Shown in pieces: positions 3,418 through 19,780 of a stretch of 64,000 bases of DNA; position 1 is the first letter of the stretch; every line of letters starts with the position of its first letter. The stretch comes from Acetobacter aceti NBRC 14818 (GTDB lineage: Bacteria > Pseudomonadota > Alphaproteobacteria > Acetobacterales > Acetobacteraceae). The notes beneath the pieces were generated by a model. It saw only the letters and a program-made list of their open reading frames with translations, ran no database searches and was not told the DNA's origin. The position numbers were made by a program, and so were the translations under genes. The DNA is taken from the NCBI RefSeq assembly GCF_000193495.2, contig NZ_AP023410.1, forward strand, positions 2,356,001 through 2,420,000, written 5' to 3'.

Positions 3418-3427
3418 AAATCGACGA

Positions 3428-3657: not shown

Positions 3658-3814
3658 GCCTGGGCAAGCTCGGAAAACATGCATGCTTTGGTTGTGGATA
3701 GTGCGTTTGTAATAAATATATCTCGATAATCCAATAAAGATGCATAATAATTGCGTGTTTATGTGGGTGTGTGTGTTAAAAACACAATAATTATATCTAT
3801 TTAATTGAATATAG

Positions 3815-3843
3815 TTGACCAGATAGCAAGTTGATGCTAAATA
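3815..3843 (+). promoter_or_regulatory. Candidate sigma-70 promoter for the double-glycine peptide gene
   Basis: TTGACC at 3815-3820 and TAAATA at 3838-3843 are separated by 17 bases, a near-consensus sigma-70 arrangement, 68 bases upstream of the peptide ATG. The surrounding DNA is AT-rich, so chance matches are more likely than usual. Confidence 0.5.
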
Positions 3844-3910
3844 TATTTTCTGTAGAAGAAGTGTATCTTTTCTACAATTCTTCCTGAGGTAACTGTTGAG
3901 GCAATCTGTC

Positions 3911-4225: not shown

Positions 4226-4330
4226 AACGTCTGCCTGCTCAAGTCAGAAGAGTAATGATGTGAATTTTGATCCTCTATGATGGCGTCAGAGTTGATTGTG
4301 CTCTTTCTGGGATGACGGGTTTTGTTTTTA

Positions 4331-4370
4331 ATGCGATTGCGGCATTTTGAGTGCTGTAATCGCATTTTTA
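4331..4370 (+). terminator. Rho-independent terminator after the leader-peptide gene
   Basis: The arms ATGCGATTGCGGC and GCTGTAATCGCAT form a stem with a short loop and are followed by TTTTTAAT, about 105 bases after the peptide stop codon. Confidence 0.7.
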
Positions 4371-5175
4371 ATATTCTGAGCTTTTTTTCTAATAGAAAAT
4401 GTATTTCAAACGGATGTATTGACAGTATCCGTGTGACGATAAGAGTAGTTTAATTTCAGTATTGAAATTGAAAATGTGTTTTTAAAATAATTAATTTTCT
4501 GAATTGAGTGTGGTGTCTATGGTTTCAGTGTTTTTCTGTGAGAGTGAGTTTTTGGAAATATTTATAATATAAATGAAAAGTATAGTATTTATGGAGAAAA
4601 ATACTCAAAATTATAAAGAATTTTTATATATTTTAGTATTTAATAATTAATATTTAAGAGATGTTATTCTTGTTTTTTATTTATGATATGTTCAGGATTA
4701 TCTGAATTTTTAGTGTAATTTGATTTTCTGTAGCAATGTGGTTTGCTTTTGATAGATTGCATGTCAATCTTGGTTTTCTATACAGATAAATTGTTTGTTT
4801 GGCGCTGGGCGCTCCCGGTTTATGGTATTATATTTTTTTTGCACACAATAAACATATATATATTTTGTATATTTATAAATATATAACCGGGTTGTGATAA
4901 AATCAATGGGAATTTTTTGAAAGCATAAGTCGGAAAATCAGATTTTCTTTTGATTGTAGTCTCTTATCGTTAAAACAGTGCAAATAATTATTATCTCAGT
5001 TGCAAAATAACCTATGATCGCATATCGCATTTTTTAGAGATTTGTTCGCTGATCGTCAAAATAGGTGAAAAATATACATGATAAAAGCAACAAATAGAGA
5101 ACATTATGCTTGGGATGAGCATAATTTCTGGTCTTAATTCTTGCAGTATACTGGGCGTCGAAAAGGTAAATTAAA
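4371..5175. other. AT-rich gene-free stretch upstream of the synthetase
   Basis: About 800 bases with very low GC (long A/T runs, for example 4600-4680 and 4830-4890), in sharp contrast to the GC-rich flanking chromosome. I see no convincing coding region. The longest plus-strand mini-frame starting with ATG at 4573 is 25 codons of low-complexity sequence. The stretch probably holds the promoter and regulatory region of the synthetase operon and may be a target for an AT-binding silencer; no promoter stands out because chance matches are frequent here. Confidence 0.6.
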
Positions 5176-8100
5176 GTGGGAAAAAGTGCGGATTTCATTG
5201 ATGTCCTGTCAAGAAGAGCCTCTGCGCAATCTGCCTCCATCGCTTTTTCAGAGCTTGATGCAATGCTGGATGTGCAGGCATCTCTCACATACGCCGAACT
5301 GGATACCCAAGCCCGTAAGGTTGCGGTATCCCTGCTGAAAAGATCATCCCGCGGCGCCCGTTGCCTTTTACTGTATCCTCCTGGCATTGATGCTGTCGTC
5401 GCGTTCTTTGGTTGCCTCTATGCTGGCATCCTTCCCGTTCCGGTTCTGCCCTATGCTTCCAACAGGCATCTTGATCGTATAGTGCGCGTTGCTGAAAACG
5501 CTGGCGCCCTGATTGGATTGGCAACCGATACAGTCGTAGCTGTTCTTGGGCATCACCTTTCTCTCTCCAATGGAGATGCTCTTGAGTGGTTGCAGCTTTC
5601 CGAGTTGCAGAATGAGGGAGATGCATCGGAATGGGATGGCTGCCAGCGCACCCCAGAAAGTATCGCATTTCTTCAATATACATCCGGATCGACCGGCACC
5701 CCTCGAGGCGTGTGCGTCTCGCATGCCAATCTCGTCAATAACGCACAAGCCATTGCATCCGGCTTCCGGCTTGATGATAATGGCGTGCTTGTCTCCTGGC
5801 TTCCCGCCCATCATGACATGGGCTTGATAGGATGCCTTTTGCAGCCGGTTTTCAGTGGTGTTTCGACTTATCTTCTGTCGCCATTGCACTTTACAAGGCA
5901 GCCGCTTGACTGGCTCCGCGCAATCAGTCGCTACAAGGGCAATTACAGTGGCGCTTCCGATTTTGCTTACCGTATGTGCATCGAAGCCGCACAGAACGGA
6001 TTGCCTGACGATCTCGATCTGAGCAGCTGGAATACGGCTTTTTCGGGCGCCGAAGTTGTCAGGGCGCCCACACTGAAAAAATTTCACGAAACGTTCTCCC
6101 CTGTGGGGTTCAGGGCTTCTTCTGTGACGGCATGCTACGGCATGGCGGAAACAACATTGTGGGTTTCCGGCGCGCATAATTCCATGGCGCATATCCTCGA
6201 TGTGGATCGTCAGGCTCTTGCTGCAGGTGAGGCCGTCCATTCCTCGAATTCGGTTGAGACTGTCCAGCTTGTCGGCTGTGGTAATATCTACAACGATGCT
6301 GATCTGCGTATTGTTGATCCGGACACTCTTGCAGAGTGCAAGCCTTCCCGGATAGGGGAAATCTGGTATTCAGGCGAAAATGTCGCACAGGGATACTGGG
6401 AAAACCCTGAGGCAACAGAAGAAAAATTCAATTTTTCTCTTGAAAGCGCTGAGGGTAAAAAATATCTACGTACAGGTGATATGGGCTTTGTCAGAAATGG
6501 ACAGGTTTATATTACAGGCCGACTAAAAGATATTATTATCATTAACGGCAAGAACTACTATCCGGATGATATCGAAAATATCGTGATGGAAAGTCATCCG
6601 GCCATGAAGGGCGCGGCATGCGTGGCTTTCTCGGTCGATAATGATCATCGTAACGAGCGGCTGGTCATTATTGTTGAGCCGCATGACTGGCACCTCAGTC
6701 AGCAGCAGCAGGAAGAAGCCACAACCGCTCTGCGTTCGATGATTTCACGTGATGCGGGTTTGCGTGTGGACGAAGTGCTTTTTGTCCGCAGAGGACAGGT
6801 TCCCAGAACATCGAGCGGCAAATTGCAGCGACGTGCGGCATTGCAGCGCTATCAGGCTCAGGAGTTCAAGCAGATCAAGAACAGGGTCTGTCAGGATGAA
6901 CCGGAAAAAGCCGGAGTTGCTGAAGAAAGCAAACGTTCCCGGCCATCGCTTCGTGTTTTTGTGGAAGAAGCACTCCGTTTGTCTCCGGGTTCCCTGCGGA
7001 CCGATATTCCCCTGACCTCCCTTGGGCTGGACTCTCTGACAGCCATGCGGATTTCTGGTGCGATCGAAAATCAGTTCGGAGTTGAAGTTCCGCTGGATAT
7101 TCTGTTCGACGGCGCCAGTTTTGATGATCTGCAGGAGCGTATTGCATCTCCGGACGGCGTTTCTTCTCCCAGATCAAAGTTCGTCAAAAGCGATGTGCCT
7201 GTAGAAGGAGAATTCCCTCTCCGCCCCATTCAGCGCGCCTATGTGGTTGGGAGAGATGAAAACGTTTCGTTCGGTGGATTCTCCACATACGTTTATATTG
7301 AGATCGATGGAGAATGGCATCCCAAACAGCTCGAAAATGCCTGGAACAAGCTCATTGCGCGGCATGCTTCCTTGCGAACTGTTGTGCTGTCTCAGGGCGT
7401 ACAGAAAATTCTTGAGGCTCCCGGAAAATACACCATTCCGGTTGCCGATTTCTCTGGATTGTCTGAAGAAGAAAGGCGGGAGGCTCTTCTTGCCTGCACG
7501 CGTGACAATGAGAACCGGGTCTTGCCGCTTGGTGTGTGGCCTCTTTTCGACCTGAAAATCAGCAAAACAGGATATGGGAAAAACAGACTGCATTTTGGCA
7601 TTGATATGCTTATTGCAGATCTTTCCACGATTATTCTTCTTCTGTCTGAAATGAACCAGCTTCTTCAGGGAGAGGATCTGCCGGCACTTCCGGAAACCGG
7701 TTTCCAGAGTTATGTCGCATATGAACAGGCAGCGCAGTCCGGCAAGACGCGAGAGAACGCCTTGCGTTACTGGCAGGACAGAATAGCCGACATCCCGCCG
7801 CCGCCTCTCTCCATCGCGTCGCTTCAGGGGCAGCGGCCTCGCCTTGGCCGTAGAAAATACGTGCTGTCCGAAGATCTGTGGGCTGGCCTTGTCCAAAATG
7901 GAGAGCGTTTTGGTCTGACCAAGTCGACCGTGATGTGTGCGATCTATGCTGAAGTCCTTGGGCGCTGGAGCGGTAACGCTCATTTCCATTTGAGTCTGCC
8001 ATTGAACGACAGACTGCCGGTCGATCTGAATATTGACAGGGTTGCTGGCGACTTTACCCGAATAGAAATTCTGGAGATCGACAACCGGAACGGTAAGAGT

Positions 8101-10344
8101 TTCGCCGACAGATCTTCGGACATTCAGAAGCGTCTACGTGCGGACCTGGCGCACCGTATGGTCGATGGTGTGGATGTTCTGCAGCTTATGTCACGAGCGG
8201 CTCCAGAGACAACGGAATGCGGTCGTGTCGTGTTTACCAGCGGAATTGGTCTGCCGGGTCTGACGACAGATCCTGATCTGTGGATACTCGGCGAGGAAGT
8301 GGGTGGCATCAGTCAGACGCCACAGGTTGTGCTGGACAACCATGTGTTCGAGATGCACGGCGGTCTGGTTGTTAACTGGGACGCCATGGAAAATGCCTTC
8401 CCCGAAGGTTTCCTTGATAGCATGTTTGAGTCCTATGTCGCGCTGATCACTGATCTGGCAAGCAGCCCGGATGCCTGGTTCAAAACGTCACCTCTTCTGC
8501 TGACGTGTGAGCAGAGACTGACCCGTGATCATGTGAATGCAACAGAAACAGTTCTGCCTCAGGGTAACCTTGATGATCTGTTCGGTAAGCAGGTCGCACT
8601 GACCCCGGATGCACCGGCTCTTTTGGGGCAGGGTAGTGATACGGCACTGAGTTATATCGAACTGCGAAAGTTGGCTGATGGAATTGCCCATGCGCTTGGA
8701 CAGGCTCCTCTCAGTGGCCTGACCGGTGTCGCCATTGGAAAGAGCTTTTCGGGTCTGGCAGCCATTCTTGGCGTTCTTCAGTCAGGTTCCGGGTACATAC
8801 CGATAGATCCGGAATTGCCGCTTCTGCGTCGGGAGCAGATTCTGGCCAAGTCCGGGATCAGTCGCGTGGTGGTATCAGAAGAGAACGCGGACGATCCGGC
8901 GTGGTCCGGACTTGAAAAAATTATCGTCGATACCAACGGCGCAGTAGTTCGCACGATCCCGGCTTCCGGTATGGTTGATGAAAAGAAAAGCGGGTTTGAA
9001 GACCTCGCCTATGTCATCTTCACCTCCGGATCGACTGGTGAGCCAAAAGGTGTAGCGCTCAACCATCGTGGTCCATTGAATACAATTACGGACCTGATCC
9101 GTTGTTACGATATCAATGAGAACGACAGGTTTCTTGCTTTCTCAAATCTGAACTTCGACCTGTCTGTCTTTGATATTTTTGGCCCGCTTTCAAGTGGCGG
9201 AGCAGTCGTGCTTCCAACTGCGGAGCAACTGCGCAATCCGGGACAGATTCTGCAATTGATGGCAGAAACCGGGGTGACCATATGGAACAGCGTTCCTGCC
9301 CTGATGGACACTCTGATCGATCATATCGAGAATGCCGAGGAACCGATCCCGGCCCTGAAACTGCGTCTTGTCATGCTCAGTGGTGACTGGATTCCTCCTA
9401 TACTTCCGGCAAGAATATCGGCCATCTGGCCGGATGCCAGAGTTCTGAGCCTTGGTGGTGCGACGGAAGCCTCCATCTGGTCGATTTCACATCCAATTAT
9501 GGGCAGTGAAGAAGGCTGGACAAGTGTGCCGTATGGCAAGCCGCTAGGGAACCAGACATTCGATATCTTCAATGACCGGCAGGAGAGTTGTCCAGACTGG
9601 GTTGAAGGCGAAATCTGTATCGGTGGTATGGGACTGGCGCAGGGATATCTGCATGATCCTGTCAGGACAGCGGAACACTTTGTGACAGATCCCCGTTCTG
9701 GAAGACGTTTTTACCGGACGGGTGATCTGGGACGTTATCGTCCAAATGGCGTTATCGAATTCCTTGGGCGACGTGATGATCAGGTCAAAATCAACGGATA
9801 CAGAATAGAACTCGGTGACATAGAAAAAGTCCTCGTGTCACATGAACAGGTGAGCAAGGCCATCATTCTGCGTCATGGTGACCGTTATATGGGGCGTCTC
9901 GTTGCCTATATCGTTCTTTCAGACAGCAATGAATTCTCACTGCATGAATTGAAAGAGACGGCGCGTGATGCCTTGCCGCATTACATGATTCCAGAACGCA
10001 TTGTTGTTCTCGACGAGCTGCCACTGACCGCGAATGGCAAGATCGACCGTAAGGCTCTCAAAGCGAAGGAAATGTCCTTTGGAGAGACTTGCGCCGGGAG
10101 TATCGGCAATGAAACGATCGAGAAGCTGCGCAAGATCGTTTCCGACGTAATGGGGATTGGTGAAATTCCTTCTCATATAAGCGCATTTGATTTGGGTGCG
10201 ACGTCCATGCATCTGATTCGTATTCGTCGACGGATAGAAAGCGAGTTTGGTTGCAAGATTGGTTTGGCCAATCTCTTCCAGAATCCCACGGTGGAATCTT
10301 TGTCAGAATATCTGCATGAAAATGTGGAAAAGGTTCAGGCATGA
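5176..10344 (+). CDS. Hybrid FAAL-PCP-Cy-A(Cys)-PCP nonribosomal peptide synthetase
   Basis: A 1722-residue multidomain synthetase beginning at GTG 5176, with a weak AAAGG upstream. Domains in order: a fatty acyl-AMP ligase (about 1-580; LQYTSGSTGTPRG and YLRTGDMGF, then GRLKDIIIINGKNYYPDDIE, typical of FAALs); carrier domain 1 (about 595-670, GLDSL with Ser620); a condensation domain of heterocyclisation type (about 685-1115; DMLIAD at 810-815 is the DxxxxD motif in place of HHxxxDG); an adenylation domain (about 1135-1640; TSGSTGEPKG, NFDLSVFDIF at 1326-1335, GGATEASIW); and carrier domain 2 (GATSM, Ser1677). Reading the pocket residues by alignment to GrsA gives D-L-F-N-M-S-L-I-W-(K), close to the cysteine code of PchE and HMWP2. 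There is no terminal thioesterase or reductase domain. Predicted action: load a fatty acid, condense it with cysteine and cyclise to an acyl-thiazoline. The stop overlaps the next gene by four bases. The cysteine and thiazoline calls are strong inference; chain length is unknown. Confidence 0.92.
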   Translation: MGKSADFIDVLSRRASAQSASIAFSELDAMLDVQASLTYAELDTQARKVAVSLLKRSSRGARCLLLYPPGIDAVVAFFGCLYAGILPVPVLPYASNRHLDRIVRVAENAGALIGLATDTVVAVLGHHLSLSNGDALEWLQLSELQNEGDASEWDGCQRTPESIAFLQYTSGSTGTPRGVCVSHANLVNNAQAIASGFRLDDNGVLVSWLPAHHDMGLIGCLLQPVFSGVSTYLLSPLHFTRQPLDWLRAISRYKGNYSGASDFAYRMCIEAAQNGLPDDLDLSSWNTAFSGAEVVRAPTLKKFHETFSPVGFRASSVTACYGMAETTLWVSGAHNSMAHILDVDRQALAAGEAVHSSNSVETVQLVGCGNIYNDADLRIVDPDTLAECKPSRIGEIWYSGENVAQGYWENPEATEEKFNFSLESAEGKKYLRTGDMGFVRNGQVYITGRLKDIIIINGKNYYPDDIENIVMESHPAMKGAACVAFSVDNDHRNERLVIIVEPHDWHLSQQQQEEATTALRSMISRDAGLRVDEVLFVRRGQVPRTSSGKLQRRAALQRYQAQEFKQIKNRVCQDEPEKAGVAEESKRSRPSLRVFVEEALRLSPGSLRTDIPLTSLGLDSLTAMRISGAIENQFGVEVPLDILFDGASFDDLQERIASPDGVSSPRSKFVKSDVPVEGEFPLRPIQRAYVVGRDENVSFGGFSTYVYIEIDGEWHPKQLENAWNKLIARHASLRTVVLSQGVQKILEAPGKYTIPVADFSGLSEEERREALLACTRDNENRVLPLGVWPLFDLKISKTGYGKNRLHFGIDMLIADLSTIILLLSEMNQLLQGEDLPALPETGFQSYVAYEQAAQSGKTRENALRYWQDRIADIPPPPLSIASLQGQRPRLGRRKYVLSEDLWAGLVQNGERFGLTKSTVMCAIYAEVLGRWSGNAHFHLSLPLNDRLPVDLNIDRVAGDFTRIEILEIDNRNGKSFADRSSDIQKRLRADLAHRMVDGVDVLQLMSRAAPETTECGRVVFTSGIGLPGLTTDPDLWILGEEVGGISQTPQVVLDNHVFEMHGGLVVNWDAMENAFPEGFLDSMFESYVALITDLASSPDAWFKTSPLLLTCEQRLTRDHVNATETVLPQGNLDDLFGKQVALTPDAPALLGQGSDTALSYIELRKLADGIAHALGQAPLSGLTGVAIGKSFSGLAAILGVLQSGSGYIPIDPELPLLRREQILAKSGISRVVVSEENADDPAWSGLEKIIVDTNGAVVRTIPASGMVDEKKSGFEDLAYVIFTSGSTGEPKGVALNHRGPLNTITDLIRCYDINENDRFLAFSNLNFDLSVFDIFGPLSSGGAVVLPTAEQLRNPGQILQLMAETGVTIWNSVPALMDTLIDHIENAEEPIPALKLRLVMLSGDWIPPILPARISAIWPDARVLSLGGATEASIWSISHPIMGSEEGWTSVPYGKPLGNQTFDIFNDRQESCPDWVEGEICIGGMGLAQGYLHDPVRTAEHFVTDPRSGRRFYRTGDLGRYRPNGVIEFLGRRDDQVKINGYRIELGDIEKVLVSHEQVSKAIILRHGDRYMGRLVAYIVLSDSNEFSLHELKETARDALPHYMIPERIVVLDELPLTANGKIDRKALKAKEMSFGETCAGSIGNETIEKLRKIVSDVMGIGEIPSHISAFDLGATSMHLIRIRRRIESEFGCKIGLANLFQNPTVESLSEYLHENVEKVQA

Positions 10345-11120
10345 CATCCGTGCAGACACAGGTCACGTTGAAACGGTTTTCTGGAAAAGGGCCTGCCGAT
10401 CTTAAGCTGATATGCTTTCCATATGCGGGGGGAAGCGCCGGTGTTTTTCGGAGTTGGGCAGGATTTTTTCCTGAATCGGTCTCTGTTTACGGAGTGAACC
10501 TGCCTGGACGTGATGAAAATATCGGATCAGAATGTCTTGATAATCTCCTCGAAATAGCAAGAGGTGTTGCTGATTGTCTGGAAAATGAGTGCGCTGGCCC
10601 CTCAGTGTTCTTTGGGCACAGCATGGGGGCACTGGTTGCCTGGGTCACAGCGCGTGAATTGCGGAAAAGGGAACTACCTCTTCCATTGCAGCTCTTTCTT
10701 TCCGGTATGAACGCTCCATCTGTTCCACGAGATGAGTTCTCCCATCTGGATGATGATGCCTTCATTCAAAAATTGCTGGATATGAGCGAGGGCAGTCCGG
10801 CAATCTTTGACAAGATCAGTATGATTCGGGAAGAACCGGAACTGATCGAGCTGATGCTGCCGGTTGTCAGGGCTGATGTCCGTTCCGTAGATAGTTACAG
10901 CTATACACATGAGACACCCCTTGCCTGTCCGATTTTTTCTTTTTACGGAAGCATGGACAGGCAGACAGCACCAGAGGCGATAGCTGCCTGGAAAGATGAA
11001 ACTGAAGGTTCTTTTGGGATGCACGAATTTGATGGAAGTCATTTCTTTCTGCATGACCGGGAACCGGAAGTTCTTGATAAAATAAAGGCTGTTCTCTCTG
11101 AAAGAGATATCAAGATATAA
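10341..11120 (+). CDS. Type II thioesterase (alpha/beta hydrolase)
   Basis: A 259-residue stand-alone thioesterase of the GrsT/RifR type. LKLICFPYAGGSAGVFRSWA (about 21-40) is the family's N-terminal motif, FFGHSMGALVAW places the nucleophile at Ser94, and GSHFFLHD near residue 235 supplies the catalytic His. Its ATG overlaps the synthetase stop (ATGA), so the two are translationally coupled. Type II thioesterases normally remove stalled acyl groups from carrier domains. Because the synthetase lacks its own release domain, this enzyme could also hydrolyse the finished thiazoline from the last carrier; that second role is inference. Confidence 0.92.
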   Translation: MTSVQTQVTLKRFSGKGPADLKLICFPYAGGSAGVFRSWAGFFPESVSVYGVNLPGRDENIGSECLDNLLEIARGVADCLENECAGPSVFFGHSMGALVAWVTARELRKRELPLPLQLFLSGMNAPSVPRDEFSHLDDDAFIQKLLDMSEGSPAIFDKISMIREEPELIELMLPVVRADVRSVDSYSYTHETPLACPIFSFYGSMDRQTAPEAIAAWKDETEGSFGMHEFDGSHFFLHDREPEVLDKIKAVLSERDIKI

Positions 11121-11212
11121 AGGCTTGTTCTGTTTTTCTTGCGCCTTGACACCTTTGCTTCCCTTCCTGGCGATGGGTTGAGGCAGGCCAGGAACAGTGT
11201 GAAAGAGACGGT

Positions 11213-12343
11213 ATGGCGCAGGATGATCACATACAGGAGGATAAGGTTTCTGATAATCTGGAGGAGCCTGTTGCCAGCAGCGGGACGGAGGATGTTCCTC
11301 GGAAGAAAGGCCGGAGACGCAATGTCGTAGCGTTCGTTCTTTTGATTGTTCTAGTTATAGTTCTCTGCTGTTATTATTTTTATAAGACACGCAATGACGT
11401 AAAGACCGAAGATGCCTATACGGCGGGCCGGAAGCATGCGATCGCATCACAGGTCAGCGGATATGTGACGCAGTTGCTTGTTGACGATAATCAGTTTGTT
11501 TATCGCGGCGATCTTCTGCTTTCGATTGATCACAGCGACTATGTGGTCGCCTTTAACAAAGCTCGGGCTGCTGTTCTTAAGGCAGAGGCCAATATCAGGG
11601 CATTCCGTATGATTGCGGAGATTTCGCACAAGACCTTTCCAGGAAGGCTCCGGGCTGCAGAAGGAAGTCTGCAGATTGCGGAAGCCCAGCTTATGCGGGC
11701 CAAGGCCGATTATCACCGCCAGCTTACAGTGATGCGGGAAGGCACATCCCAGCAGGATATTGATCATGCCAGAGCAGCTCTGGAAGAAGCCCAGGCTAAG
11801 GTTGCTTCTGCACAGGGCGATGTGACGCAGGCGGAACCGGTCGAATCAAATCTGCAAAATGCTGCAGCTCACGTGTCGCAGGAAGAAGCTGCTTTGGTTG
11901 AAGCGAAGGCCGATCTTGAGCAGGCCGAAATCAATCTGATCCGCACCCACATTCGTGCGCCGTGTGATGGATGGGTCTCCCAGCGTAATGTGGAACTGGG
12001 GAATTTCGTGAAGCCTGGACAGCAGATGATGTCTATTGTCCCTGCTGACGTCTGGATCGTTGCGAACTACAAGGAAACCCAGATACAGGGGATGAAGCCG
12101 GGTCAGAAGGTAGACATTTCCATCAATGCCTTTCCCCAGCTTCGTCTTCAGGGGCATGTTGATTCCATTCAATTGGGATCGGGTGAGTCCTTCAGTACTT
12201 TTCCGCCTGAAAATGCTACCGGAAATTTTGTGAAAATCGTGCAAAGAATTCCGGTAAAAATCCGTATTGACGGTGGTCTTCCGCGGAATGGTCCACCGTT
12301 GCCTCTGGGCCTGTCCGTCGAACCGGTGGTCCATATAGAATGA
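11213..12343 (+). CDS. EmrA/HlyD-family membrane fusion protein
   Basis: A 376-residue periplasmic adaptor. A charged cytoplasmic N-terminus is followed by one membrane segment (about 39-58, VVAFVLLIVLVIVLCCYYF), then the lipoyl/barrel-sandwich half-motif VKTEDAYTAGRKHAIASQVSGYV, a long coiled-coil hairpin (about 105-215) and the second half RTHIRAPCDGWVSQRNVELG. This is the architecture of EmrA-type adaptors that pair with 14-TM MFS pumps. Its stop overlaps the following emrB-like start (AATGA). It probably links the inner-membrane pump to the outer-membrane factor at 14027-15559 to export the product of the cluster. Confidence 0.92.
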   Translation: MAQDDHIQEDKVSDNLEEPVASSGTEDVPRKKGRRRNVVAFVLLIVLVIVLCCYYFYKTRNDVKTEDAYTAGRKHAIASQVSGYVTQLLVDDNQFVYRGDLLLSIDHSDYVVAFNKARAAVLKAEANIRAFRMIAEISHKTFPGRLRAAEGSLQIAEAQLMRAKADYHRQLTVMREGTSQQDIDHARAALEEAQAKVASAQGDVTQAEPVESNLQNAAAHVSQEEAALVEAKADLEQAEINLIRTHIRAPCDGWVSQRNVELGNFVKPGQQMMSIVPADVWIVANYKETQIQGMKPGQKVDISINAFPQLRLQGHVDSIQLGSGESFSTFPPENATGNFVKIVQRIPVKIRIDGGLPRNGPPLPLGLSVEPVVHIE

Positions 12344-13920
12344 ACGCAAATGAGACTTCGCCACAGGATGTCTGGAAGCCGAAGCACAATCCCTGGCTAG
12401 TTGCCATTGTTGTGACATTGGCTGCGTTCATGGAAATCCTTGATACGACAGTCGTCAATGTGGCGATGCCTCATATCGCAGGGGCTCTGGGCAGTTCTTA
12501 TGACGACGCAACATGGGCCTTGACTTCCTACCTTGTCGCCAATGGCATTGTTCTGACGATTTCAGGTTGGCTTTCGCGTGTTTTCGGGCGTAAACGCTAT
12601 TTCCTGATCTGTATTGGCATATTCACCGTTGCGTCTCTTCTTTGTGGACTTGCGACGTCCCTATCCTCGCTTGTTATATTTCGTATTCTTCAAGGTTTCT
12701 TTGGGGGAGGTCTCCAGCCAAGCCAGCAGTCGATTATTCTTGATACGTTTCCGCCGGAGAAGCGCGGAGCAGCCTTCAGTCTGACAGCCGTAGCGACAGT
12801 AGTGGCTCCTGTGACCGGCCCTCTGATTGGGGGCTATCTTACCGACGAGTTGTCGTGGCGCTGGATCTTTTTTGTCAATGTACCCTTTGGAATTCTGACA
12901 ATTCTTGCTGTCATGATTCTGGTCGAGGATCCGCCATGGGAAAAGGCCAGAAAGGAACGGATCGATGTTGTCGGGATCGGATTGATCTCGCTCGGTCTGG
13001 GCTGTCTCGAAGTTATGGCCGATCGTGGCGAGGATGAAGACTGGTTCAGCTCATCCTTTATCGTTTTGATGGCTTTAACTGGTGTTTTCTGTATTCTGGG
13101 CGCGATCGTATGGCTATGTCGCGTGAAAGATCCGCTGGTAAGACTGTCAGTCCTGAAAGATCGGAATTTCGCGATTGGCACACTTCTGATTTCTGTCATG
13201 GGTGGGATACTTTACGCATCTGCTATCATCATACCGCAGTTTTCACAGCAGATGCTTGGATATACCGCCACGATTTCCGGTTTTGTTCTGGCTCCCGGTG
13301 GAATAGCCGTTGTCTGCCTGATCCCTTTCGTGAACTGGCTCATGAAGAAAATCCATGTGCGCTATGTAATCGCATGCGGATTTTTTCTTCTGGCAATGGC
13401 GATGTTTCAGGCAACGTCACTTTATGCAGAACTCGATTTGAGGCATCTTATCTTTTACCGTGTCTGTCAGACTGCGACGATGGCTTTTCTGTTTGTGCCG
13501 ATTTCCACCGTTGCCTATTCAACATTGCCTCGTGAACTCAATGCTGATGCTTCGGCGCTGTTCAGTATGGCGCGCAATTATATTGGCTCTCTCGCAATTT
13601 CACTGGGGACAGCGACTATTATTGAAACACGGCAAAGACATCAGGTCTATATTGCAGATAATATGACTGTCGGCCGAGCCGAATATTCAGCATATCTCGA
13701 CCGGGTTCAGGATATTGCAGAAGCTTATGGGTTTTCGAGCGATATGGCGGAGACTTATAGCCGGCATCGGTTGTTCGGCGAGTTTACGCGACAGGTAGCA
13801 TTGCTGGCTTACAATGACGTGTTTTTTCTTATCGGCATTCTATCTCTTGCGACCATTCCGTTCTGCTTCTTCCTCCCCACCAGCAGAAAATCTATGCAAC
13901 TGGGCACAAAAGCAAAATGA
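12340..13920 (+). CDS. EmrB/QacA-type DHA2 MFS exporter
   Basis: A 526-residue major facilitator of the 14-TM DHA2 family. Motifs visible are LDTTVVNVAMPHIAGALG in the first helix, the loop GWLSRVFGRKRYF (motif A) and the antiporter motif C region AVATVVAPVTGPLIGGYL. It should use the proton gradient to export small amphipathic molecules. It overlaps the adaptor gene by four bases and sits between synthetase and outer-membrane factor, which supports a dedicated exporter and self-resistance role. The substrate is inferred from context. Confidence 0.93.
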   Translation: MNANETSPQDVWKPKHNPWLVAIVVTLAAFMEILDTTVVNVAMPHIAGALGSSYDDATWALTSYLVANGIVLTISGWLSRVFGRKRYFLICIGIFTVASLLCGLATSLSSLVIFRILQGFFGGGLQPSQQSIILDTFPPEKRGAAFSLTAVATVVAPVTGPLIGGYLTDELSWRWIFFVNVPFGILTILAVMILVEDPPWEKARKERIDVVGIGLISLGLGCLEVMADRGEDEDWFSSSFIVLMALTGVFCILGAIVWLCRVKDPLVRLSVLKDRNFAIGTLLISVMGGILYASAIIIPQFSQQMLGYTATISGFVLAPGGIAVVCLIPFVNWLMKKIHVRYVIACGFFLLAMAMFQATSLYAELDLRHLIFYRVCQTATMAFLFVPISTVAYSTLPRELNADASALFSMARNYIGSLAISLGTATIIETRQRHQVYIADNMTVGRAEYSAYLDRVQDIAEAYGFSSDMAETYSRHRLFGEFTRQVALLAYNDVFFLIGILSLATIPFCFFLPTSRKSMQLGTKAK

Positions 13921-14026
13921 TTATGTGGACTTCTTTTCTATCGTTGATTCTGTCCACAGCAGAAAGACCAAAGAGGTCTTTGCATGTGATGTCCGCGTGG
14001 AAATATTTGGACGCAGGAGACTTCAG

Positions 14027-15559
14027 ATGTGCGTAACCCCGTTCATCCGCGTTGCATTTTCATCCTGCGTTCTTCTGGCATTGCCGGGCTGTTTGCATGT
14101 TGGCCCCAAATATCATGCGCCGAAACCGTGGTCGCCAGCACATTTCGAGAATCTGCATTCGGGAAATGCATTTAGCATGACCGAAGAGACACAAATCTCT
14201 GTGCAATGGTGGAAGACTTTCAATGATCCGGAACTCACGTCTCTTGAAGAACGTGTGGCCACTAAAAACCTGTCATTTCTTCTTGCTCTGGCAAACCTGT
14301 CTGAAAGCCGGGCGCAGCTCATGCTTGCGGGAGCGGAGCGCTTCCCTGCCCTGAGTGCCACAGGTTCCTACAGACGGGTGCAGCGTAGTGAAAAGCTGAT
14401 GCAGGAAACGCTACATCGTATCGGTGGTGGTATTGTCCATGGAACTCACGGTCAGATGGGTGAGTTGGCCAGTGGATTTATTGAAGAGGCTGGAAATACA
14501 GCGACGGTTCCATTGCTCAATCAATGGAGCTCCAGTGTAGACGCCACATATGAAATTGATCTCTGGGGACGTGTTGCGCATCAATATCAGGCTGCAAAGG
14601 CGGGATTGCAGGCAACGGAGGAAGAACGCCATGCAGTTCTGATTGCTGAAGAGGCTGACATGGCACGCGGTTATCTGACTCTTCGTGGTGATCAGCGGCG
14701 GTTGCTTGTCATGAAAGAGGGGGTGAAAGTTATTCAGAAGATCTCTGATATAGCTCAGGGCCGGTACAAGGGAGGGCTCGTATCAGCAGTGGATTATGAG
14801 TCTGCTCAGGCGCGTCTGAACGATACCCAAGCCCAGATCGCAGAAATGAATATCAAGATAGCGCAGGAAGAGAATGCTCTTGCCCTTCTTCTGGGAGAAA
14901 TGCCGGGAAGTCTCAATGAGGAACTGGAAAAGAATGTAATTACGCCAGTTGTTCCACCTGTTGTTCCCGTAGGTCTGCCGTCCGAACTGGCTCACAGACG
15001 TCCAGATATCAGGGAAGCAGAAGCGAAATTGAGGTTTGCTGTTGAAGAGACAGGTGAAGCGGTTGCGGATTTCTATCCAAGAGTAACCATCAATGCTGAT
15101 TTTGGATTCCAGACTCTTTCTTTCCGGGACCTGGGCTTTTGGAATGCAAAGGCATGGAACGTTGGTCCGTCAATTTCCCTGCCTATTTTTCAGGGTGGAA
15201 GACTGAGTGGTCAGCTTGCATTGAAAAAAGGTGCACAGAAAGCAGCTGCTATTTCATACAAGCAAACGGTTCTGCAGGCATGGCATGATGTCGATAATGC
15301 TCTGACTGCGTATCATGATGAACAGACACGCATGCAAAAATTACGTGATGAAATCGCCAATGATAATCATGCGCTCAAGCTGGCGGAAAGTCAGTATCGA
15401 AGTGGTTTGACCAATTACCTCACTGTTTTGAGCACTGAGGATCAGCTTTTAACCGCTGAACTTGCATTGGCCGAGAACGAGGCGACTGTCGCGACAAGTC
15501 TTGCTCGACTTTACAATGCTCTTGGTGGTGGATGGGAAAATGAAGCTCAATCTGAATAA
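14027..15559 (+). CDS. NodT-family outer-membrane efflux lipoprotein
   Basis: A 510-residue TolC-like outer-membrane factor. I start it at the ATG at 14027, preceded by GCAGGAGA. From here the N-terminus is a lipoprotein signal peptide ending LALPGC (Cys after about 20 residues), whereas the longer frame from 13814 would overlap the MFS gene and hide the signal. HVGPKYHAP and WWKTFNDPEL are typical of the NodT/OprM family; two long helical repeats (ELAHRRPDIREAEAKLRFA, and QYRSGLTNYLTVLSTEDQLL near the end) match the OEP domain. It completes a tripartite pump with the two preceding genes. Confidence 0.93.
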   Translation: MCVTPFIRVAFSSCVLLALPGCLHVGPKYHAPKPWSPAHFENLHSGNAFSMTEETQISVQWWKTFNDPELTSLEERVATKNLSFLLALANLSESRAQLMLAGAERFPALSATGSYRRVQRSEKLMQETLHRIGGGIVHGTHGQMGELASGFIEEAGNTATVPLLNQWSSSVDATYEIDLWGRVAHQYQAAKAGLQATEEERHAVLIAEEADMARGYLTLRGDQRRLLVMKEGVKVIQKISDIAQGRYKGGLVSAVDYESAQARLNDTQAQIAEMNIKIAQEENALALLLGEMPGSLNEELEKNVITPVVPPVVPVGLPSELAHRRPDIREAEAKLRFAVEETGEAVADFYPRVTINADFGFQTLSFRDLGFWNAKAWNVGPSISLPIFQGGRLSGQLALKKGAQKAAAISYKQTVLQAWHDVDNALTAYHDEQTRMQKLRDEIANDNHALKLAESQYRSGLTNYLTVLSTEDQLLTAELALAENEATVATSLARLYNALGGGWENEAQSE

Positions 15560-15762
15560 AGTATTATAAATATATCTTTATAAATATGCGCGATTTTGTT
15601 GAAAATAAAATAATAACTCTTGCGTTAATTTAAGAAATTTTGTCTGATGCGCGTGTCTGGCTGTAGACTATACTTTCATCAGACAGAGCGTTAAGGAAGC
15701 CACTGTAAAGCATCCTTGTTCATTCAAGCGGATCTTCCTGTGGGCTGAGTATGAGGAATAAA

Positions 15763-16407
15763 ATGGCACACAGCGTACAACCCTTTCGGGCATCGTATAG
15801 AAGTAAAATATCAAAATATTATAACGTATATCTTCATGGTGCCTTTGTCTTTTTTTTCGGGGTTTGTGCCATAATATTTTTTGCTTCAAAAATACATAAT
15901 TTCAAATTGGTTGATGGTCTGGCTTTTGTCTTTGGTATTCTGTTCTTTAATGTCTGTGAATATTATATTCACAAAAGTTTTGGGCATAGAAAAAACCCTG
16001 CCGCCCTTCTTTTTTATAAAAGACATACGGGTGACCATCACAGTTTTTTCTCTGATGATGAGATGTATTTTGATCAGGCTCAGGACTGGCGTGTTATTCT
16101 GTTTCCGCCCTGGCTCGTTGTTCTCATATCCATACTGCTGTTTGGTATCTGGTCTGGTGTCTCCATCCTGAATCAGAATATGGCCTCTTTGTTTTCCATG
16201 GCGGTGATGGGAAGTTTCTTGTGCTATGAGATCTTTCACGTCTGTGCCCATGTTCCGCCTGGATACTGGTTTACAGAGCTTCCCTGGATCAGGATGGTGC
16301 GCCGTCTGCATACCATCCACCATAGACGCCATCTTATGGCCGATCGTAATTTCAACATTCTGTTCCCAATGATGGACAGGATTTTGAAAACAATTGTTCA
16401 AAAATAA
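15763..16407 (+). CDS. Membrane fatty acid hydroxylase/sterol desaturase family protein
   Basis: About 214 residues with four hydrophobic stretches and the histidine clusters of membrane non-haem di-iron enzymes: YYIHKSFGH, RHTGDHH, FHVCAHV and LHTIHHRRH. These resemble the FA_hydroxylase superfamily (carotenoid and fatty acid hydroxylases). I chose ATG 15763 because GAGGA lies five bases upstream; ATG 15751 is possible. It follows the exporter after a 200-base AT-rich gap and precedes the PPTase, so it probably belongs to the cluster and could hydroxylate the acyl chain before or after assembly. Substrate and product are inference; loss of any His cluster is not seen. Confidence 0.82.
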   Translation: MAHSVQPFRASYRSKISKYYNVYLHGAFVFFFGVCAIIFFASKIHNFKLVDGLAFVFGILFFNVCEYYIHKSFGHRKNPAALLFYKRHTGDHHSFFSDDEMYFDQAQDWRVILFPPWLVVLISILLFGIWSGVSILNQNMASLFSMAVMGSFLCYEIFHVCAHVPPGYWFTELPWIRMVRRLHTIHHRRHLMADRNFNILFPMMDRILKTIVQK

Positions 16408-16447
16408 CAGTATTTAAAAAGTAAATTTCTCTGGTTTTTGTCTTCCA

Positions 16448-16471
16448 TTCAAGCCTCACAAGAGGCTTGAA
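16448..16471 (+). terminator. Perfect 10-bp hairpin between hydroxylase and PPTase genes
   Basis: TTCAAGCCTC-ACAA-GAGGCTTGAA is a perfect stem with a four-base loop followed by TTTG. It lies 12 bases before the PPTase ATG. It could terminate the upstream transcript or attenuate PPTase expression, since the T-run is short. Confidence 0.6.
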
Positions 16472-16483
16472 TTTGAATAAAGA

Positions 16484-17179
16484 ATGATACTATTGCTTCA
16501 AGTAAATATAAAAACGAACAAATTAATTTTTTCGTTCGAAAAAGAAATTGAAATATTTCATGTAAACCATGAAGAAAATGATGATCAGTTTTTAAAATCG
16601 CTTGATTTTATGGATGCAGATGAGTCCGAGAGAATCAAGTCTCTGGTCTGTTATAAAGATAAGCGGTCATTCGCTATAACAAGATATGCGTTGAAAAAAA
16701 TTCTTGCTGATAAAAGCAGTCTGAATTTGGAATCCATCTCTATTCAATCATTGAAAGGACAGAAGCCTTCTGCCTGCAATGATTACGGAGCACACTTCAA
16801 TGTCAGTCATTCTGATACGGATAGCGTTATTTGCGTATCCCAAAACTACGATGTTGGTATAGATCTCGAACCTGTTTCCTCATCTGTGTTCTGCTCGGAA
16901 TTGTCTGATTGTGTTTTGACTGCGAGAGAAAAAGAGATTTTTCATTCTCTTTTGCCAGAAGAAAAGAAACAGTTTTTTTTGAAGTGTTGGACCGCAAAAG
17001 AGGCTTATTGCAAACTTCTTGGGTGTGGAATTACCGAAAATTTTAAAAATCTTGAGATAACGTTGGGTCAGGAATCAATGATAAAGAAAGTCGATCAATC
17101 AGAAATTCATTTCTTCTGGTCTGGTACTGTTAAAAATCATTGTATATGTGTTGCTTTCAGACACAGGCTTGGAAAATAA
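16484..17179 (+). CDS. Sfp-type 4'-phosphopantetheinyl transferase
   Basis: A 231-residue protein with the three PPTase signatures: HFNVSHSDTDSVICV (P1 region), YDVGIDLEPV (metal-binding GIDxE) and FLKCWTAKEAYCKLLGCGI (WxxKEAxxK). These Sfp-like enzymes transfer phosphopantetheine from CoA to the carrier-domain serines of synthetases, here presumably Ser620 and Ser1677. The gene is strikingly AT-rich and follows a stem-loop without a strong ribosome binding site, unlike the other cluster genes. It closes the plus-strand cluster; the next gene is convergent. Length is the usual 220-240. Confidence 0.93.
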   Translation: MILLLQVNIKTNKLIFSFEKEIEIFHVNHEENDDQFLKSLDFMDADESERIKSLVCYKDKRSFAITRYALKKILADKSSLNLESISIQSLKGQKPSACNDYGAHFNVSHSDTDSVICVSQNYDVGIDLEPVSSSVFCSELSDCVLTAREKEIFHSLLPEEKKQFFLKCWTAKEAYCKLLGCGITENFKNLEITLGQESMIKKVDQSEIHFFWSGTVKNHCICVAFRHRLGK

Positions 17180-17332
17180 AAGTATGTAATAATTGTCTCG
17201 TTTCTGGAAAATGCAGCAGTGAAGTTGTTTGTTATTATGCGAAAACTTTAGAAAGTAAAACGAGATTTTTATTTTTCTTATCATGGAAAACGCCTGTCAG
17301 CCGTTCTTCCGCAAATATCTCAGTTCCATAGT

Positions 17333-17860
17333 CTATAGGGCGGGTGTTTCCTTCTCTGCTCCCTTGTGCGCCACGCTTTCGAATACCAGCATGTTGTGTC
17401 CGCCGCGCATGAAATGCTCACACACTCTCATGCCGATGCCTCCCAATACCTTGCGGGAGGCGATATTGCTGTCACGGGCGACGGCCATCACGCGAGAAAA
17501 ACCTGCTGCATGAGCATGACGAAGCGCCGCTGCTGCTGCTTCCCGTGCAAGTCCCCGTCCGGCTGCCCAAGGGTAGATCGCAAACCTGAGCGCAACACCG
17601 CGTCCATCCGGTCGCTCATGCACGCCCGTGATGCCGATCAGCTGTCCGTTTTCGCGGATAGCGAACATGCCGGTACCGTATTTTGCCCAGAAGGTGATGT
17701 CGGACACCATCTCCGCCTCCGCCTGCTGACGGTTGCGTACACCACCGAGCATCATGGCGAACGCGCCCCCATCCGCCTTGAGGCGTGCAATATCCTCCAT
17801 GTCGCGCCAGGAAACGGGCGTCAGTGTGAGGCGGGCGGTGCGGAGGATATGCAGGCTCAT
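17333..17860 (-). CDS. GNAT acetyltransferase, RimJ/RimL-like
   Basis: A 175-residue GNAT-fold protein. RTARLTLTPVSWRDMEDI at the start is typical of the RimJ/RimL group, YPWAAGRGLAREAAAAALRH is the acetyl-CoA-binding motif A, and VARDSNIASRKVLGGIGM is motif B. These enzymes acetylate N-terminal or side-chain amines; the substrate cannot be told. It is convergent with the PPTase gene and its GC-rich sequence marks the return to the normal chromosome after the island. Confidence 0.88.
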   Translation of the reverse strand: MSLHILRTARLTLTPVSWRDMEDIARLKADGGAFAMMLGGVRNRQQAEAEMVSDITFWAKYGTGMFAIRENGQLIGITGVHERPDGRGVALRFAIYPWAAGRGLAREAAAAALRHAHAAGFSRVMAVARDSNIASRKVLGGIGMRVCEHFMRGGHNMLVFESVAHKGAEKETPAL

Positions 17861-17911
17861 GGATGATCTATCAGAAACATCCTGAAGTGAATTTGTAAAA
17901 TGGAAGCCGGC

Positions 17912-17984
17912 AGAATGTCTGGTGTCTGTTTTCGAAAACAGGCCATCTGAAGCTTTTTGAAAAAAGCTTCACCAAAAACATTCT
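17912..17984 (-). repeat. Nested palindromic intergenic repeat, copy 1
   Basis: Outer arms AGAATGTCTGGTGT and ACCAAAAACATTCT enclose two hairpins, CTGTTTTCGAAAACAG and GAAGCTTTTTGAAAAAAGCTTC. The GTTTTTGGTGAAGC arm (here reversed) is shared with copies at 28494, 35259 and 57433, while the second hairpin differs between copies. Confidence 0.75.
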
Positions 17985-18027
17985 GGTGTTTTACAGGAAC
18001 ATTTCCTGCAATTGCCGAGAAACAGGC

Positions 18028-18075
18028 CGGGATCAAAGTGACTGCGTCCCTTTGTGGGGACGGGGCAACGCCCCG
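18028..18075 (+). repeat. GC-rich hairpin repeat (GGGATCAAAG family), copy 1
   Basis: CGGGATCAAAG, then TTGTGGGG and the hairpin CGGGGCAACGCCCCG, match in order the reverse complement of 54043-54091. It sits directly beside a copy of the other repeat family, downstream of ettA, where the hairpin could serve as a terminator. Confidence 0.6.
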
Positions 18076-18100
18076 TAAAACCACCCCGCCCGAAACCGGC

Positions 18101-19780
18101 TTATCGCGCCAGCGGACGATACTTGATCCGGCTCGGCTCGACCGCAGCATCGCCCAGACGACGCTTCTTGTCTTCCTCATACGCCTGGAAGTTACCCTCG
18201 AACCACTCGACATGGCTGTCACCCTCAAAGGCGAGGATATGCGTGGCGAGACGGTCGAGGAACCAGCGATCATGGGAGATGATCACGGCGCAGCCCGGAT
18301 ACTCGGCCAGCGCGTCTTCCAGTGCGCGGAGCGTATCGACATCGAGATCGTTGGTCGGCTCATCGAGCAGGATGACGTTACTTTCCTTGCGAAGCATCTT
18401 CGCAAGGTGAACGCGGTTACGCTCACCACCGGACAGCACGCCGACCTTCTTCTGCTGGTCAGCGCCCTTGAAGTTGAATGCGCCGACATAGGCACGCGAC
18501 GGAACCGCGCGCTTGCCAAGATAGATCACGTCCGTGCCGCCCGAAATTTCTTCCCAGACAGTCTTATTGTCGTCGAGACTGTCGCGTGACTGGTCGACGT
18601 AACCGAGTTCAACCGTGTCACCGATGGTCAGCTTGCCGCTGTCCGGCTGCTCCTGCCCGGTGATCATCTTGAACAGCGTGGACTTACCCGCGCCGTTCGG
18701 TCCGATCACACCGACAATGCCACCTGGCGGCAGTTTGAAGTTCAGCTTGTCGATCAGCAGATGGTCGCCGAAGCCCTTCGTCAGGTCTTCCGCCTCGATC
18801 ACCACATTGCCCAGACGCGGGCCGGGGGTGATGACGATTTCCGCCGTGCCAGCAGCCTTCTCGTTGCTCTTGGCCAGCAACTCTTCGTATTTGGTGATAC
18901 GGGCCTTGCTCTTCGCCTGACGGGCCTTCGGACTGGAGGCAATCCACTCCTGCTCGGCGGCAAGGGCGCGCTGGCGGCCGCTCTCTTCCTTCTCTTCCTG
19001 CGCCAGACGCTTGCGCTTCTGTTCCAGCCACGAAGAGTAGTTGCCTTCGAACGGATAGCCGCGACCGCGCTCGATCTCGAGAATCCAGTTGGTCACATTG
19101 TCGAGGAAGTAACGGTCATGGGTGATGACCATGACGGTGCCTTCGTAGTCACGCAGGGTCTTTTCGAGCCATGCCACGCTCTCGGCGTCGAGATGGTTGG
19201 TCGGTTCGTCAAGCAGCAGCAGATCAGGCTTTTCCAGCAGCAGACGGCACAGCGCGACGCGACGGCGCTCACCACCGGAAAGCTTATCGACGGGGCTGTC
19301 GGCAGGCGGGCAGCGCAGTGCGTCGAGCGCGATTTCCAGCTTGCGGTCGAGTTCCCAGCCATCGCCCGCATCGATCTTCTCCTGAAGATCAGCCTGCTCG
19401 GCGAGGAGCGCGGTCATTTCGTCCTCGTCCATCGGCTCGGCGAACTTGGCGGAGATCTCGTTGAAGCGGTCGACCGCCTTCTTCAGGTCGCCGAAACCCT
19501 GTGCGGCGTTTTCACCGACCGTCAGGTTCGGGTCGAGCTTCGGCTCCTGTTCGAGATAGCCGACCTTCACGCCTTCAGCGGCCCAGGCCTCGCCACCATA
19601 TTCCTTGTCGATCCCGGCCATGATCTTGAGCAGGGTCGATTTACCGGCGCCGTTGACGCCGAGAACGCCGATCTTGGCGCCGGGCATGAAGGACAGGGTG
19701 ATGCCCTTGAAGACTTCGCGACCGCCCGGATAGGACTTGGTCAGGTCCTTCATCACATAGACATATTGATATGGCGCCAT
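18101..19780 (-). CDS. ettA: EttA, energy-dependent translational throttle ABC-F protein
   Basis: A 559-residue soluble ABC-F protein with two nucleotide-binding domains: Walker [13 protein letters not shown] and [12 protein letters not shown], signatures [11 protein letters not shown] and [11 protein letters not shown], and Walker [13 protein letters not shown] and [12 protein letters not shown]. The start [20 protein letters not shown] at ATG 19780 matches EttA; a 21-codon upstream extension is not supported. EttA binds the ribosomal E site and gates entry into elongation according to ATP/ADP. Length (555 in Escherichia coli) and the linker match. It is monocistronic and downstream of a tRNA gene. 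Confidence 0.96.

What the first reader, a model, noticed from the sequence alone, without database searches (positions are those of the whole stretch)
5176..17179. Candidate undescribed acyl-thiazoline biosynthesis and export cluster
One polypeptide holds FAAL, PCP, heterocyclisation, adenylation and PCP domains, followed directly by a type II thioesterase, an EmrA-EmrB-NodT tripartite exporter, a membrane fatty acid hydroxylase-like enzyme and its own Sfp-type PPTase, all on one strand. Order and overlaps (ATGA at synthetase/TE, AATGA at EmrA/EmrB) argue for one system. From established roles of these families, the simplest product is a fatty-acyl 2-thiazoline-4-carboxylate, possibly hydroxylated on the chain, pumped through both membranes. 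I do not know a described pathway with exactly this set. Possible roles are metal binding, signalling or antimicrobial action; these are inference.
Basis: partly seen in the sequence, partly recalled or inferred. Interest (0 to 1): 0.88.

Follow-up and report, generated by a model that had tools for sequence, protein, structure and literature searches.

The report
Fatty-acyl thiazoline synthetase and export cluster
A vinegar-type bacterium (Acetobacter) carries a compact seven-gene set that most likely joins a fatty acid to cysteine, closes it into a small sulfur ring and pumps the product out of the cell; the enzyme kinds are familiar, but I found no described pathway that uses them in this way, and no product has been shown.

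Summary
Window 5176-17179 carries seven same-strand genes: a FAAL-PCP-Cy-A-PCP synthetase (1722 aa), type II thioesterase, EmrA, EmrB, a NodT-type outer-membrane factor, a membrane FA_hydroxylase-family enzyme and an Sfp-type PPTase. The condensation domain is of the heterocyclization type (DMLIAD motif; groups with other Cy domains). The A-domain code reads DLFNMSLIWK; over nine positions it differs once from PchE and twice from BmdB, both cysteine loaders (positions and substrates recalled). A 2-alkyl-thiazoline-4-carboxyl product is the best prediction. The seven genes stand in the same order in 3 of 49 genus genomes, with dN/dS 0.02-0.42. The genome has one Condensation-domain match and two PPTase matches, one of each in the cluster. 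A fourth genome has a broken remnant. The synthetase is rare: 3 of 395 order-level genomes, own included, plus a 53%-identical JGI protein with the same code. Not shown: chain length, release, hydroxylase action, any product or role. Paper searches showed no such pathway in their listings; MIBiG and antiSMASH were not available. New variant of a known kind.

The parts
5176..10344 (+). Synthetase, FAAL-PCP-Cy-A-PCP, 1722 aa
   Evidence: Pfam/NCBIfam; 97% and 83% identical in two other genomes of the genus
5176..6870 (+). FAAL domain (residues 1-565)
   Evidence: PDB phmmer; PF00501 and PF23024
6943..7170 (+). PCP1 (residues 590-665), LGLDSL, Ser620
7204..8505 (+). Heterocyclization (Cy) domain (residues 677-1110), DMLIAD at 7603-7620
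   Evidence: best solved relatives of the Cy-A-PCP part: BmdB, 6lta, LgrA, PchE
8572..10095 (+). Adenylation domain (residues 1133-1640), code DLFNMSLIWK, predicted Cys
10096..10320 (+). PCP2 (residues 1641-1715), LGATSM, Ser1677
10341..11120 (+). Type II thioesterase, GHSMG from residue 92, YGSMD from 202, GSHFFL from 232
   Evidence: PF00975; RifR, YbtT and surfactin thioesterase relatives; motifs
11213..12343 (+). EmrA-type periplasmic adaptor
   Evidence: TIGR00998 257 bits, below its cut-off of 390.8; HlyD Pfam models above cut-off; one N-terminal hydrophobic segment
12340..13920 (+). EmrB-type DHA2 MFS permease
   Evidence: TIGR00711 above cut-off
14027..15559 (+). NodT-type outer-membrane factor, probable lipoprotein
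   Evidence: TIGR01845 above cut-off; start by homology
15751..16407 (+). Membrane FA_hydroxylase-family enzyme with conserved His motifs
   Evidence: PF04116; H74, H79, H92, H96, H97, H163, H167, H187, H190, H191 invariant in 31 aligned sequences
16484..17179 (+). Sfp-type phosphopantetheinyl transferase, weakly HetI-like
   Evidence: PF01648; one of two PF01648 matches in the genome, the other in a 136-aa frame

Best explanation
The cluster makes and exports a 2-alkyl-thiazoline-4-carboxylic acid (an acyl-thiazoline). Inferred order of work: the PPTase arms both PCPs; the FAAL adenylates a fatty acid and loads PCP1; the A domain loads L-cysteine on PCP2; the Cy domain makes the amide and closes the thiazoline by loss of water; the type II thioesterase (there is no TE domain in cis) hydrolyses the product off PCP2; the hydroxylase oxygenates the acyl chain before or after this; EmrA-EmrB-NodT carries the product across both membranes. 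Shown by sequence: the domains, the key motifs, the Cys-type code, joint conservation. Inferred: every chemical step, chain length, release, hydroxylation, export of this product. No role is shown.
For: Domain content and motifs. Cy domain: DxxxxD in place of HHxxxD; in a tree of 48 rows it lies in the group of 41 Cy-motif rows (three of them its own family), split from 7 C rows at 100/100. A code DLFNMSLIWK, same in the 83% and 53% relatives; at the nine positions covered, PchE reads DLFNLSLIW and BmdB DLYNLSLIW, both cysteine loaders by my knowledge, while 6lta, a Cy enzyme for another residue (recalled), differs at several. Same seven genes in the same order in 3 of 49 genus genomes, own included; dN/dS 0.02-0.42 for all seven in both comparisons. 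One Condensation-domain match in the genome and two PPTase matches, one in the cluster, so that PPTase most likely serves this synthetase. The exporter is a separate EmrAB copy: the other copy in the genome is 54% (EmrA) and 60% (EmrB) identical and has no nodT match in the 16 kb read around it.
Against: No product is known. A dedicated release domain is missing, and type II thioesterases usually edit (recalled). FAAL subfamily models of NCBIfam match far below their cut-offs (for example 439.6 of 775), and no NCBIfam model passes its cut-off for thioesterase, hydroxylase or PPTase among those shown. Genome G117 keeps an emrB tail, nodT and a broken hydroxylase frame, with no Condensation-domain match in the genome and no PPTase match in the 19 kb read: I read it as decay or an assembly gap at the contig end, but it could mean that exporter and hydroxylase have a life of their own. 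Relatives of the hydroxylase elsewhere have no NRPS gene among the ORFs scanned.
Confidence: 0.68

Rival explanations
1. Synthetase product as above, but hydroxylase and exporter are recruited neighbours that do another job (general efflux, lipid modification), not tailoring and export of this product.
For: G117 holds nodT and hydroxylase DNA without any Condensation-domain match; hydroxylase relatives in 4 other genomes have no NRPS gene among the ORFs scanned.
Against: Same order and low dN/dS in three genomes; the G117 hydroxylase frame is broken and no PPTase match follows it, as expected of a decaying cluster.
Confidence: 0.12
2. The product is a linear N-acyl-cysteine or another acyl-amino acid; the Cy domain condenses without lasting ring closure, or the ring opens after release.
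For: A ring-opened thiazoline form is described for a lusichelin (PMC12210259, passages read).
Against: DxxxxD motif and Cy clade; Cys code.
Confidence: 0.1
3. The thiazolinyl chain stays on PCP2 and is passed to a PKS, acyltransferase or other partner elsewhere, so the free acid is only a shunt.
For: No TE domain in cis.
Against: No PKS or second NRPS gene among the seven genes or the 11 flanking frames scanned, and no other Condensation-domain match in the genome. PKS genes elsewhere in the genome were not searched for.
Confidence: 0.06
4. Relic or silent horizontally acquired cluster with no present function.
For: GC 35-52% per gene against 56% for window 20000-64000; patchy occurrence, no match in a close relative with ettA 98% identical.
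Against: All seven frames are open in the window and no stop was met in the matches of the two relatives; dN/dS far below 1 (dS to G295 is 1.0-1.6 for the seven genes, so near saturation).
Confidence: 0.04

Closest known systems
Micacocidin / massiliachelin / agrochelin assembly lines
   Same: FAAL start and Cys-loading modules that make thiazoline (PMC6604713, passages read; PMC11837247 Table 2, section read).
   Different: There PKS domains make an alkylphenol cap before the first thiazoline, and more modules follow; here the FAAL feeds the Cy module directly and nothing follows. No PKS domain among the seven genes.
Pyochelin PchE and bacillamide BmdB
   Same: Among the closest solved Cy-A relatives, with nearly the same Cys code.
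   Different: PchE starts from salicylate and BmdB from an alanine unit (recalled). Neither has a FAAL (recalled).
Cyanobacterial FAAL-PCP-C-A-PCP-Cy-A-PCP proteins (Microcoleus and kin)
   Same: FAAL start and a Cys-type Cy module in one protein.
   Different: A normal C-A module with another code lies between fatty acid and thiazoline (in those printed).
FAAL-Cy-A proteins P0083, P0125 and P0135
   Same: FAAL feeds a Cy module with Cys-type code directly.
   Different: Cy domains 34-38% identical that do not group with the Acetobacter clade in the tree; P0083 and P0125 carry PF00881, so a thiazole is likely. No product known to me.

Membership tests
Fatty acyl-AMP ligase (FAAL) | Closer to acyl-AMP ligases than to CoA ligases | tested here: met
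   15 best PDB sequences (E 1e-136 to 6e-60): 6 named acyl-AMP or adenylate ligases by the depositors, the other 9 FAALs by my recollection although deposited as polyketide synthase, saframycin synthetase, acyl-CoA synthase or CoA ligase FadD28. Then NRPS A domains (from 8e-44) and the first other CoA ligase at 5e-29. NCBIfam FAAL models below cut-off
Fatty acyl-AMP ligase (FAAL) | Transfers acyl-AMP to a carrier, not to CoA | not testable with these tools
   needs enzyme; a PCP follows directly
NRPS heterocyclization (Cy) domain | DxxxxD motif and placement among Cy domains | tested here: met
   DMLIAD; split from C rows at 100/100 in a tree of 48 of 253 domains
Cysteine-specific A domain | Ten-position code like known Cys loaders | tested here: met
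   DLFNMSLIWK; PchE DLFNLSLIW and BmdB DLYNLSLIW read; positions and substrates recalled
Type II thioesterase | Stand-alone PF00975 hydrolase with Ser, Asp and His motifs | tested here: met
EmrAB-TolC type tripartite exporter | Adaptor, DHA2 permease and outer-membrane factor together | tested here: met
   TIGR00711 and TIGR01845 above cut-off; for the adaptor TIGR01730 above (121.2 of 94.9) but TIGR00998 below its cut-off (257.5 of 390.8)
FA_hydroxylase superfamily (PF04116) | Conserved His motifs and hydrophobic segments | tested here: met
FA_hydroxylase superfamily (PF04116) | Hydroxylates a fatty acyl chain | not testable with these tools
   needs enzyme; the structure job did not finish
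Siderophore / metallophore cluster | TonB receptor, uptake gene or metal regulator in the cluster | tested here: not met
   none among the 7 genes; of the 11 flanking frames scanned, only the ars operon's own ArsR is a metal regulator. A FecCD-type ABC set lies about 16 kb away beyond thrS
Siderophore / metallophore cluster | Fur-type operator | tested here: inconclusive
   GATAATNATTATC with 1 mismatch at 4983-4995; 2 such matches in the window (the other inside the synthetase gene), 0.11 expected; AT-rich spacer, not conserved in G295
Micacocidin-type cluster | PKS between FAAL and first Cy module | tested here: not met

The most novel reading that the evidence does not exclude
The cluster is the smallest known route to a lipid metallophore: a single synthetase makes an alkyl-thiazoline carboxylate, the membrane hydroxylase puts an OH next to the ring (C2 of the acyl chain), and the O,N,O ligand so formed is exported to bind copper or iron in acidic fermentations. 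A class of exported hydroxy-lipid thiazolines would be new.
Probability: 0.15. Interest if true: 0.75.

Novelty: new variant of a known kind. Interest (0 to 1): 0.52.

Why it matters
If right, one synthetase plus a thioesterase gives a type of sulfur-bearing lipid that I could not find described, and the whole pathway with its exporter fits in 12 kb in a food-related genus. The 2021 survey of the family (PMC8776678, passages read) says that none of its predicted specialized metabolites had been purified by then. It is a simple, testable system for how Cy domains accept fatty-acyl donors and whether a type II thioesterase can be the release enzyme.

Tried and rejected
Tried without result: Rfam on 3500-18000 (0 hits); promoter and terminator scan (no excess over shuffles); PDB sequence search for the hydroxylase (only one match, E 0.69, to an aminotransferase); structure prediction of the hydroxylase (never finished); paper searches (0 papers; one paper on synthetic thiazolines, from its listing); synthetase against plasmid records (817 records match, all under 60% identity). 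The scan of 84,980 named species genomes gave 15 loci, of which only L032 (UBA5411) matches closely and over the full length (its patterns find close relatives only).

Considered and rejected: that other NRPS matches in the family are the same system. One search finds a match in 299 of 299 genomes, but among the matches it lists only the own genome and G295 match over the full length (two candidates per genome were scored, and one search's list is cut, so misses are possible). G809 and G327 match over nearly the full length at about 31-37%, but their condensation domains carry HHxxxD: ordinary lipopeptide lines. That the hydroxylase marks such clusters elsewhere: at the thresholds used, 18 of 385 class genomes (E 1e-25) and 5 of 398 phylum genomes (E 1e-40) match, own genome included; I read the neighbourhoods of the 4 others only, where 19 of 55 ORFs listed were scanned and none is an NRPS. 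That the cluster sits at a clean empty site in G299: gene order there is rearranged, so I claim only that no match was found.
Full report
What is there. The region 5176-17179 holds seven genes on the + strand. The first encodes a 1722-residue synthetase: FAAL (1-565), PCP (LGLDSL, Ser620), heterocyclization domain (677-1110), adenylation domain (1133-1640) and PCP (LGATSM, Ser1677). It overlaps by ATGA with a type II thioesterase (GHSMG; relatives RifR, YbtT, surfactin thioesterase). Then come EmrA, EmrB, a NodT-type outer-membrane factor, a membrane FA_hydroxylase-family enzyme and an Sfp-type PPTase. No TE domain in the synthetase and no PKS domain in the seven genes was found. The nodT frame as listed starts too early; 14027 is the likely start.

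What the synthetase should make. Three tests bear on this. (1) The condensation domain carries DMLIAD where normal C domains have HHxxxD. In a tree of 48 domains chosen from 253 found in the homologues, it lies in the group of 41 rows with a Cy motif (three of them its own family), split from 7 C rows at 100/100. The best solved relatives of the Cy-A-PCP part are BmdB, the 6lta enzyme, LgrA and PchE. (2) The ten-position A code, read at positions that I recalled, is DLFNMSLIWK. In one search, PchE reads DLFNLSLIW and BmdB DLYNLSLIW at the same nine positions (the tenth lies outside that alignment); both are known to me as cysteine loaders. The 6lta enzyme, a Cy enzyme for another residue (recalled), differs at several of them. 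The code is identical in the 83% and 53% relatives. (3) The 15 best PDB sequences for the first domain (E 1e-136 to 6e-60) are FAALs, 6 by deposited name and 9 by my recollection; NRPS A domains follow from 8e-44 and the first other CoA ligase stands at 5e-29. Against this, the FAAL models of NCBIfam match below their cut-offs. A fatty acyl chain handed directly to a Cys-loading Cy module gives a 2-alkyl-thiazoline-4-carboxyl thioester. This follows from established Cy chemistry; it has not been shown here.

One unit. The same seven genes in the same order stand in G330 (synthetase 97%) and G295 (83%), with GNAT and ettA on the right in all three. On the left, the window has an ars operon for which the other two show no match in the DNA read; there, glycosyltransferase, TPR, thrS and Rrf2 genes lie nearer, and the window's genome has them further left. 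dN/dS is 0.02-0.16 for six genes and 0.18-0.42 for the PPTase. GC per gene is 35-52% against 56% for window 20000-64000, which fits acquisition from elsewhere. At E <= 1e-150, 4 of 49 genus genomes match the synthetase; one of them, G327 (31%), is a 5434-aa frame with HHxxxD domains and so another NRPS. The cluster is thus in 3 of 49, own included. G299, a close relative by ettA (98%), has no match to synthetase or hydroxylase at the thresholds used.

A remnant. G117 (its contig has the length of one named Acetobacter sp. AN02) has an emrB tail at a contig end, nodT (71%) and the hydroxylase (65%) in the same order. The hydroxylase frame is broken, no PPTase match follows it, and the genome has no Condensation-domain match. 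Decay is the simplest reading; an assembly gap at the contig end, or a separate life of exporter plus hydroxylase, is not excluded. G117 also holds an intact emrAB pair (EmrB 57.5% identical to the cluster's), like the second copies in G000 and G295.

Rarity. Among 395 order-level genomes 15 match at E <= 1e-200, and 4 over nearly the full length: the three with the cluster and G809, which has HHxxxD C domains. Only two candidates per genome were scored there, so misses are possible. In the large protein collection, two searches (7999 and 7998 candidates scored; the best 120 of 3721 and of 672 matches listed) gave 238 entries here, of which P0001 and P0002 are the same protein. With FAAL first, Cy next and a Cys-type code I find P0001/P0002, P0003, P0004, P0083, P0125 and P0135; P0131 and P0153 have FAAL-Cy with another code; P0148 and P0235 show an ambiguous motif at 21-24% identity and were not counted; 169 others begin with FAAL and were not classed as Cy next (P0119 among the unclear ones). 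P0001, P0003 and P0004 form their own clade (100/100); the other FAAL-Cy proteins fall elsewhere among the Cy domains, though deep forks are open. This hints that FAAL and Cy were joined more than once. A search with P0004 in 396 phylum-level genomes found only the window's own synthetase at E <= 1e-250.

Hydroxylase. Ten histidines in the motifs typical of this superfamily (recalled as di-iron ligands) are invariant in 31 aligned sequences (chosen from 73 matches). The family is thinly spread: 18 of 385 class genomes at E <= 1e-25 and 5 of 398 phylum genomes at E <= 1e-40, own genome included. In the 4 other genomes, 3 have the hydroxylase fused to a Polyketide_cyc2 domain and a LysR gene beside it, one of these with a strictosidine-synthase-like gene next door; 19 of the 55 ORFs listed were scanned and none is an NRPS. 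So the enzyme looks recruited, and its substrate here is open. The AlphaFold job did not finish.

Role. No TonB receptor, uptake gene or metal regulator lies among the seven genes; the 11 flanking frames scanned hold only the ars operon's own regulator. A FecCD/periplasmic-binding/ATPase set with an Rrf2 gene lies about 16 kb to the left in the window's genome, beyond thrS, in DNA shared with G330 and, by DNA similarity of the left flank, with G295; I do not count it as part. One Fur-like 6-1-6 site (one mismatch) lies at 4983-4995; two such matches stand in the window against 0.11 expected, but the spacer is very AT-rich, the other match is inside a gene, and G295 does not keep the site. I leave the role open.

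Prior art. The Acetobacteraceae antiSMASH survey (PMC8776678; passages and outline seen) reports NRPS genes in 14 of 96 acetous species, 10 of 15 such genes monomodular. Its main text does not hold words beginning with thiazol, cysteine or fatty acyl. It does say that A. aceti NBRC 14818 has NRPS genes with a CAL domain (the antiSMASH name that mostly means FAAL, PMC11837247 section 4.1), an AmT domain and a TE domain; I could not see its supplement, so an earlier sighting of a related gene is possible, although an AmT and a TE in the assembly line do not fit this cluster. The FAAL review (PMC11837247; sections 3.1, 3.4, 4.1 and passages read) lists published FAAL products; micacocidin and massiliachelin are thiazolines with a PKS-made alkylphenol (PMC6604713, passages). 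I know of no direct acyl-thiazoline in its table, though I could not check the fischerazoles. Lusichelins and fatuamide A are salicyl-thiazoline metallophores, not fatty-acyl ones (PMC12210259 and PMC11877528, passages). The listings showed no fatty-acyl thiazoline pathway; most listed papers were not opened. Most subscription papers, MIBiG and antiSMASH were out of reach.

Verdict. Observation confirmed; chemistry prediction well supported by sequence; tailoring, release, export substrate and role inferred. Known parts in a combination that I could not find described: a new variant of a known kind, interest 0.52.

Noticed in passing
window 628-3531: Arsenic resistance operon arsR-arsC-arsB-arsH directly left of the cluster; no match in the DNA read left of the cluster in G330 and G295.
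   Followed up: partly
window 4983-4995: Fur-like 6-1-6 site (one mismatch) in the AT-rich spacer about 180 bases before the synthetase; kept in G330, not in G295.
   Followed up: partly
L058 (G117) 16657-19441: Cluster remnant: emrB tail, nodT, broken hydroxylase frame, no PPTase match beside it and no Condensation-domain match in the genome.
   Followed up: yes
L087 (G000 contig C2, 1-12000): First 12 kb of this contig are 99.3% identical to a Novacetimonas hansenii plasmid and in part to Acetobacter and Komagataeibacter plasmids; carries RND efflux and cation-transporter genes.
   Followed up: no
L121, L122, L124 (G1077, G959, G1083): Relatives of the hydroxylase fused to a Polyketide_cyc2 (SRPBCC) domain with a LysR gene beside them, in L122 followed by a strictosidine-synthase-like gene: an uncharacterised small system.
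   Followed up: partly
L121 4532-6262: A SAVED-domain protein (CBASS-type defence sensor family) lies near the hydroxylase relative in G1077.
   Followed up: no
P0083, P0125, P0131, P0135, P0153 (protein searches): FAAL-Cy-A proteins from other sources; all but P0135 have an oxidase-type domain (PF00881), so likely alkyl-thiazole or alkyl-oxazole makers; FAAL and Cy may have been joined independently.
   Followed up: partly
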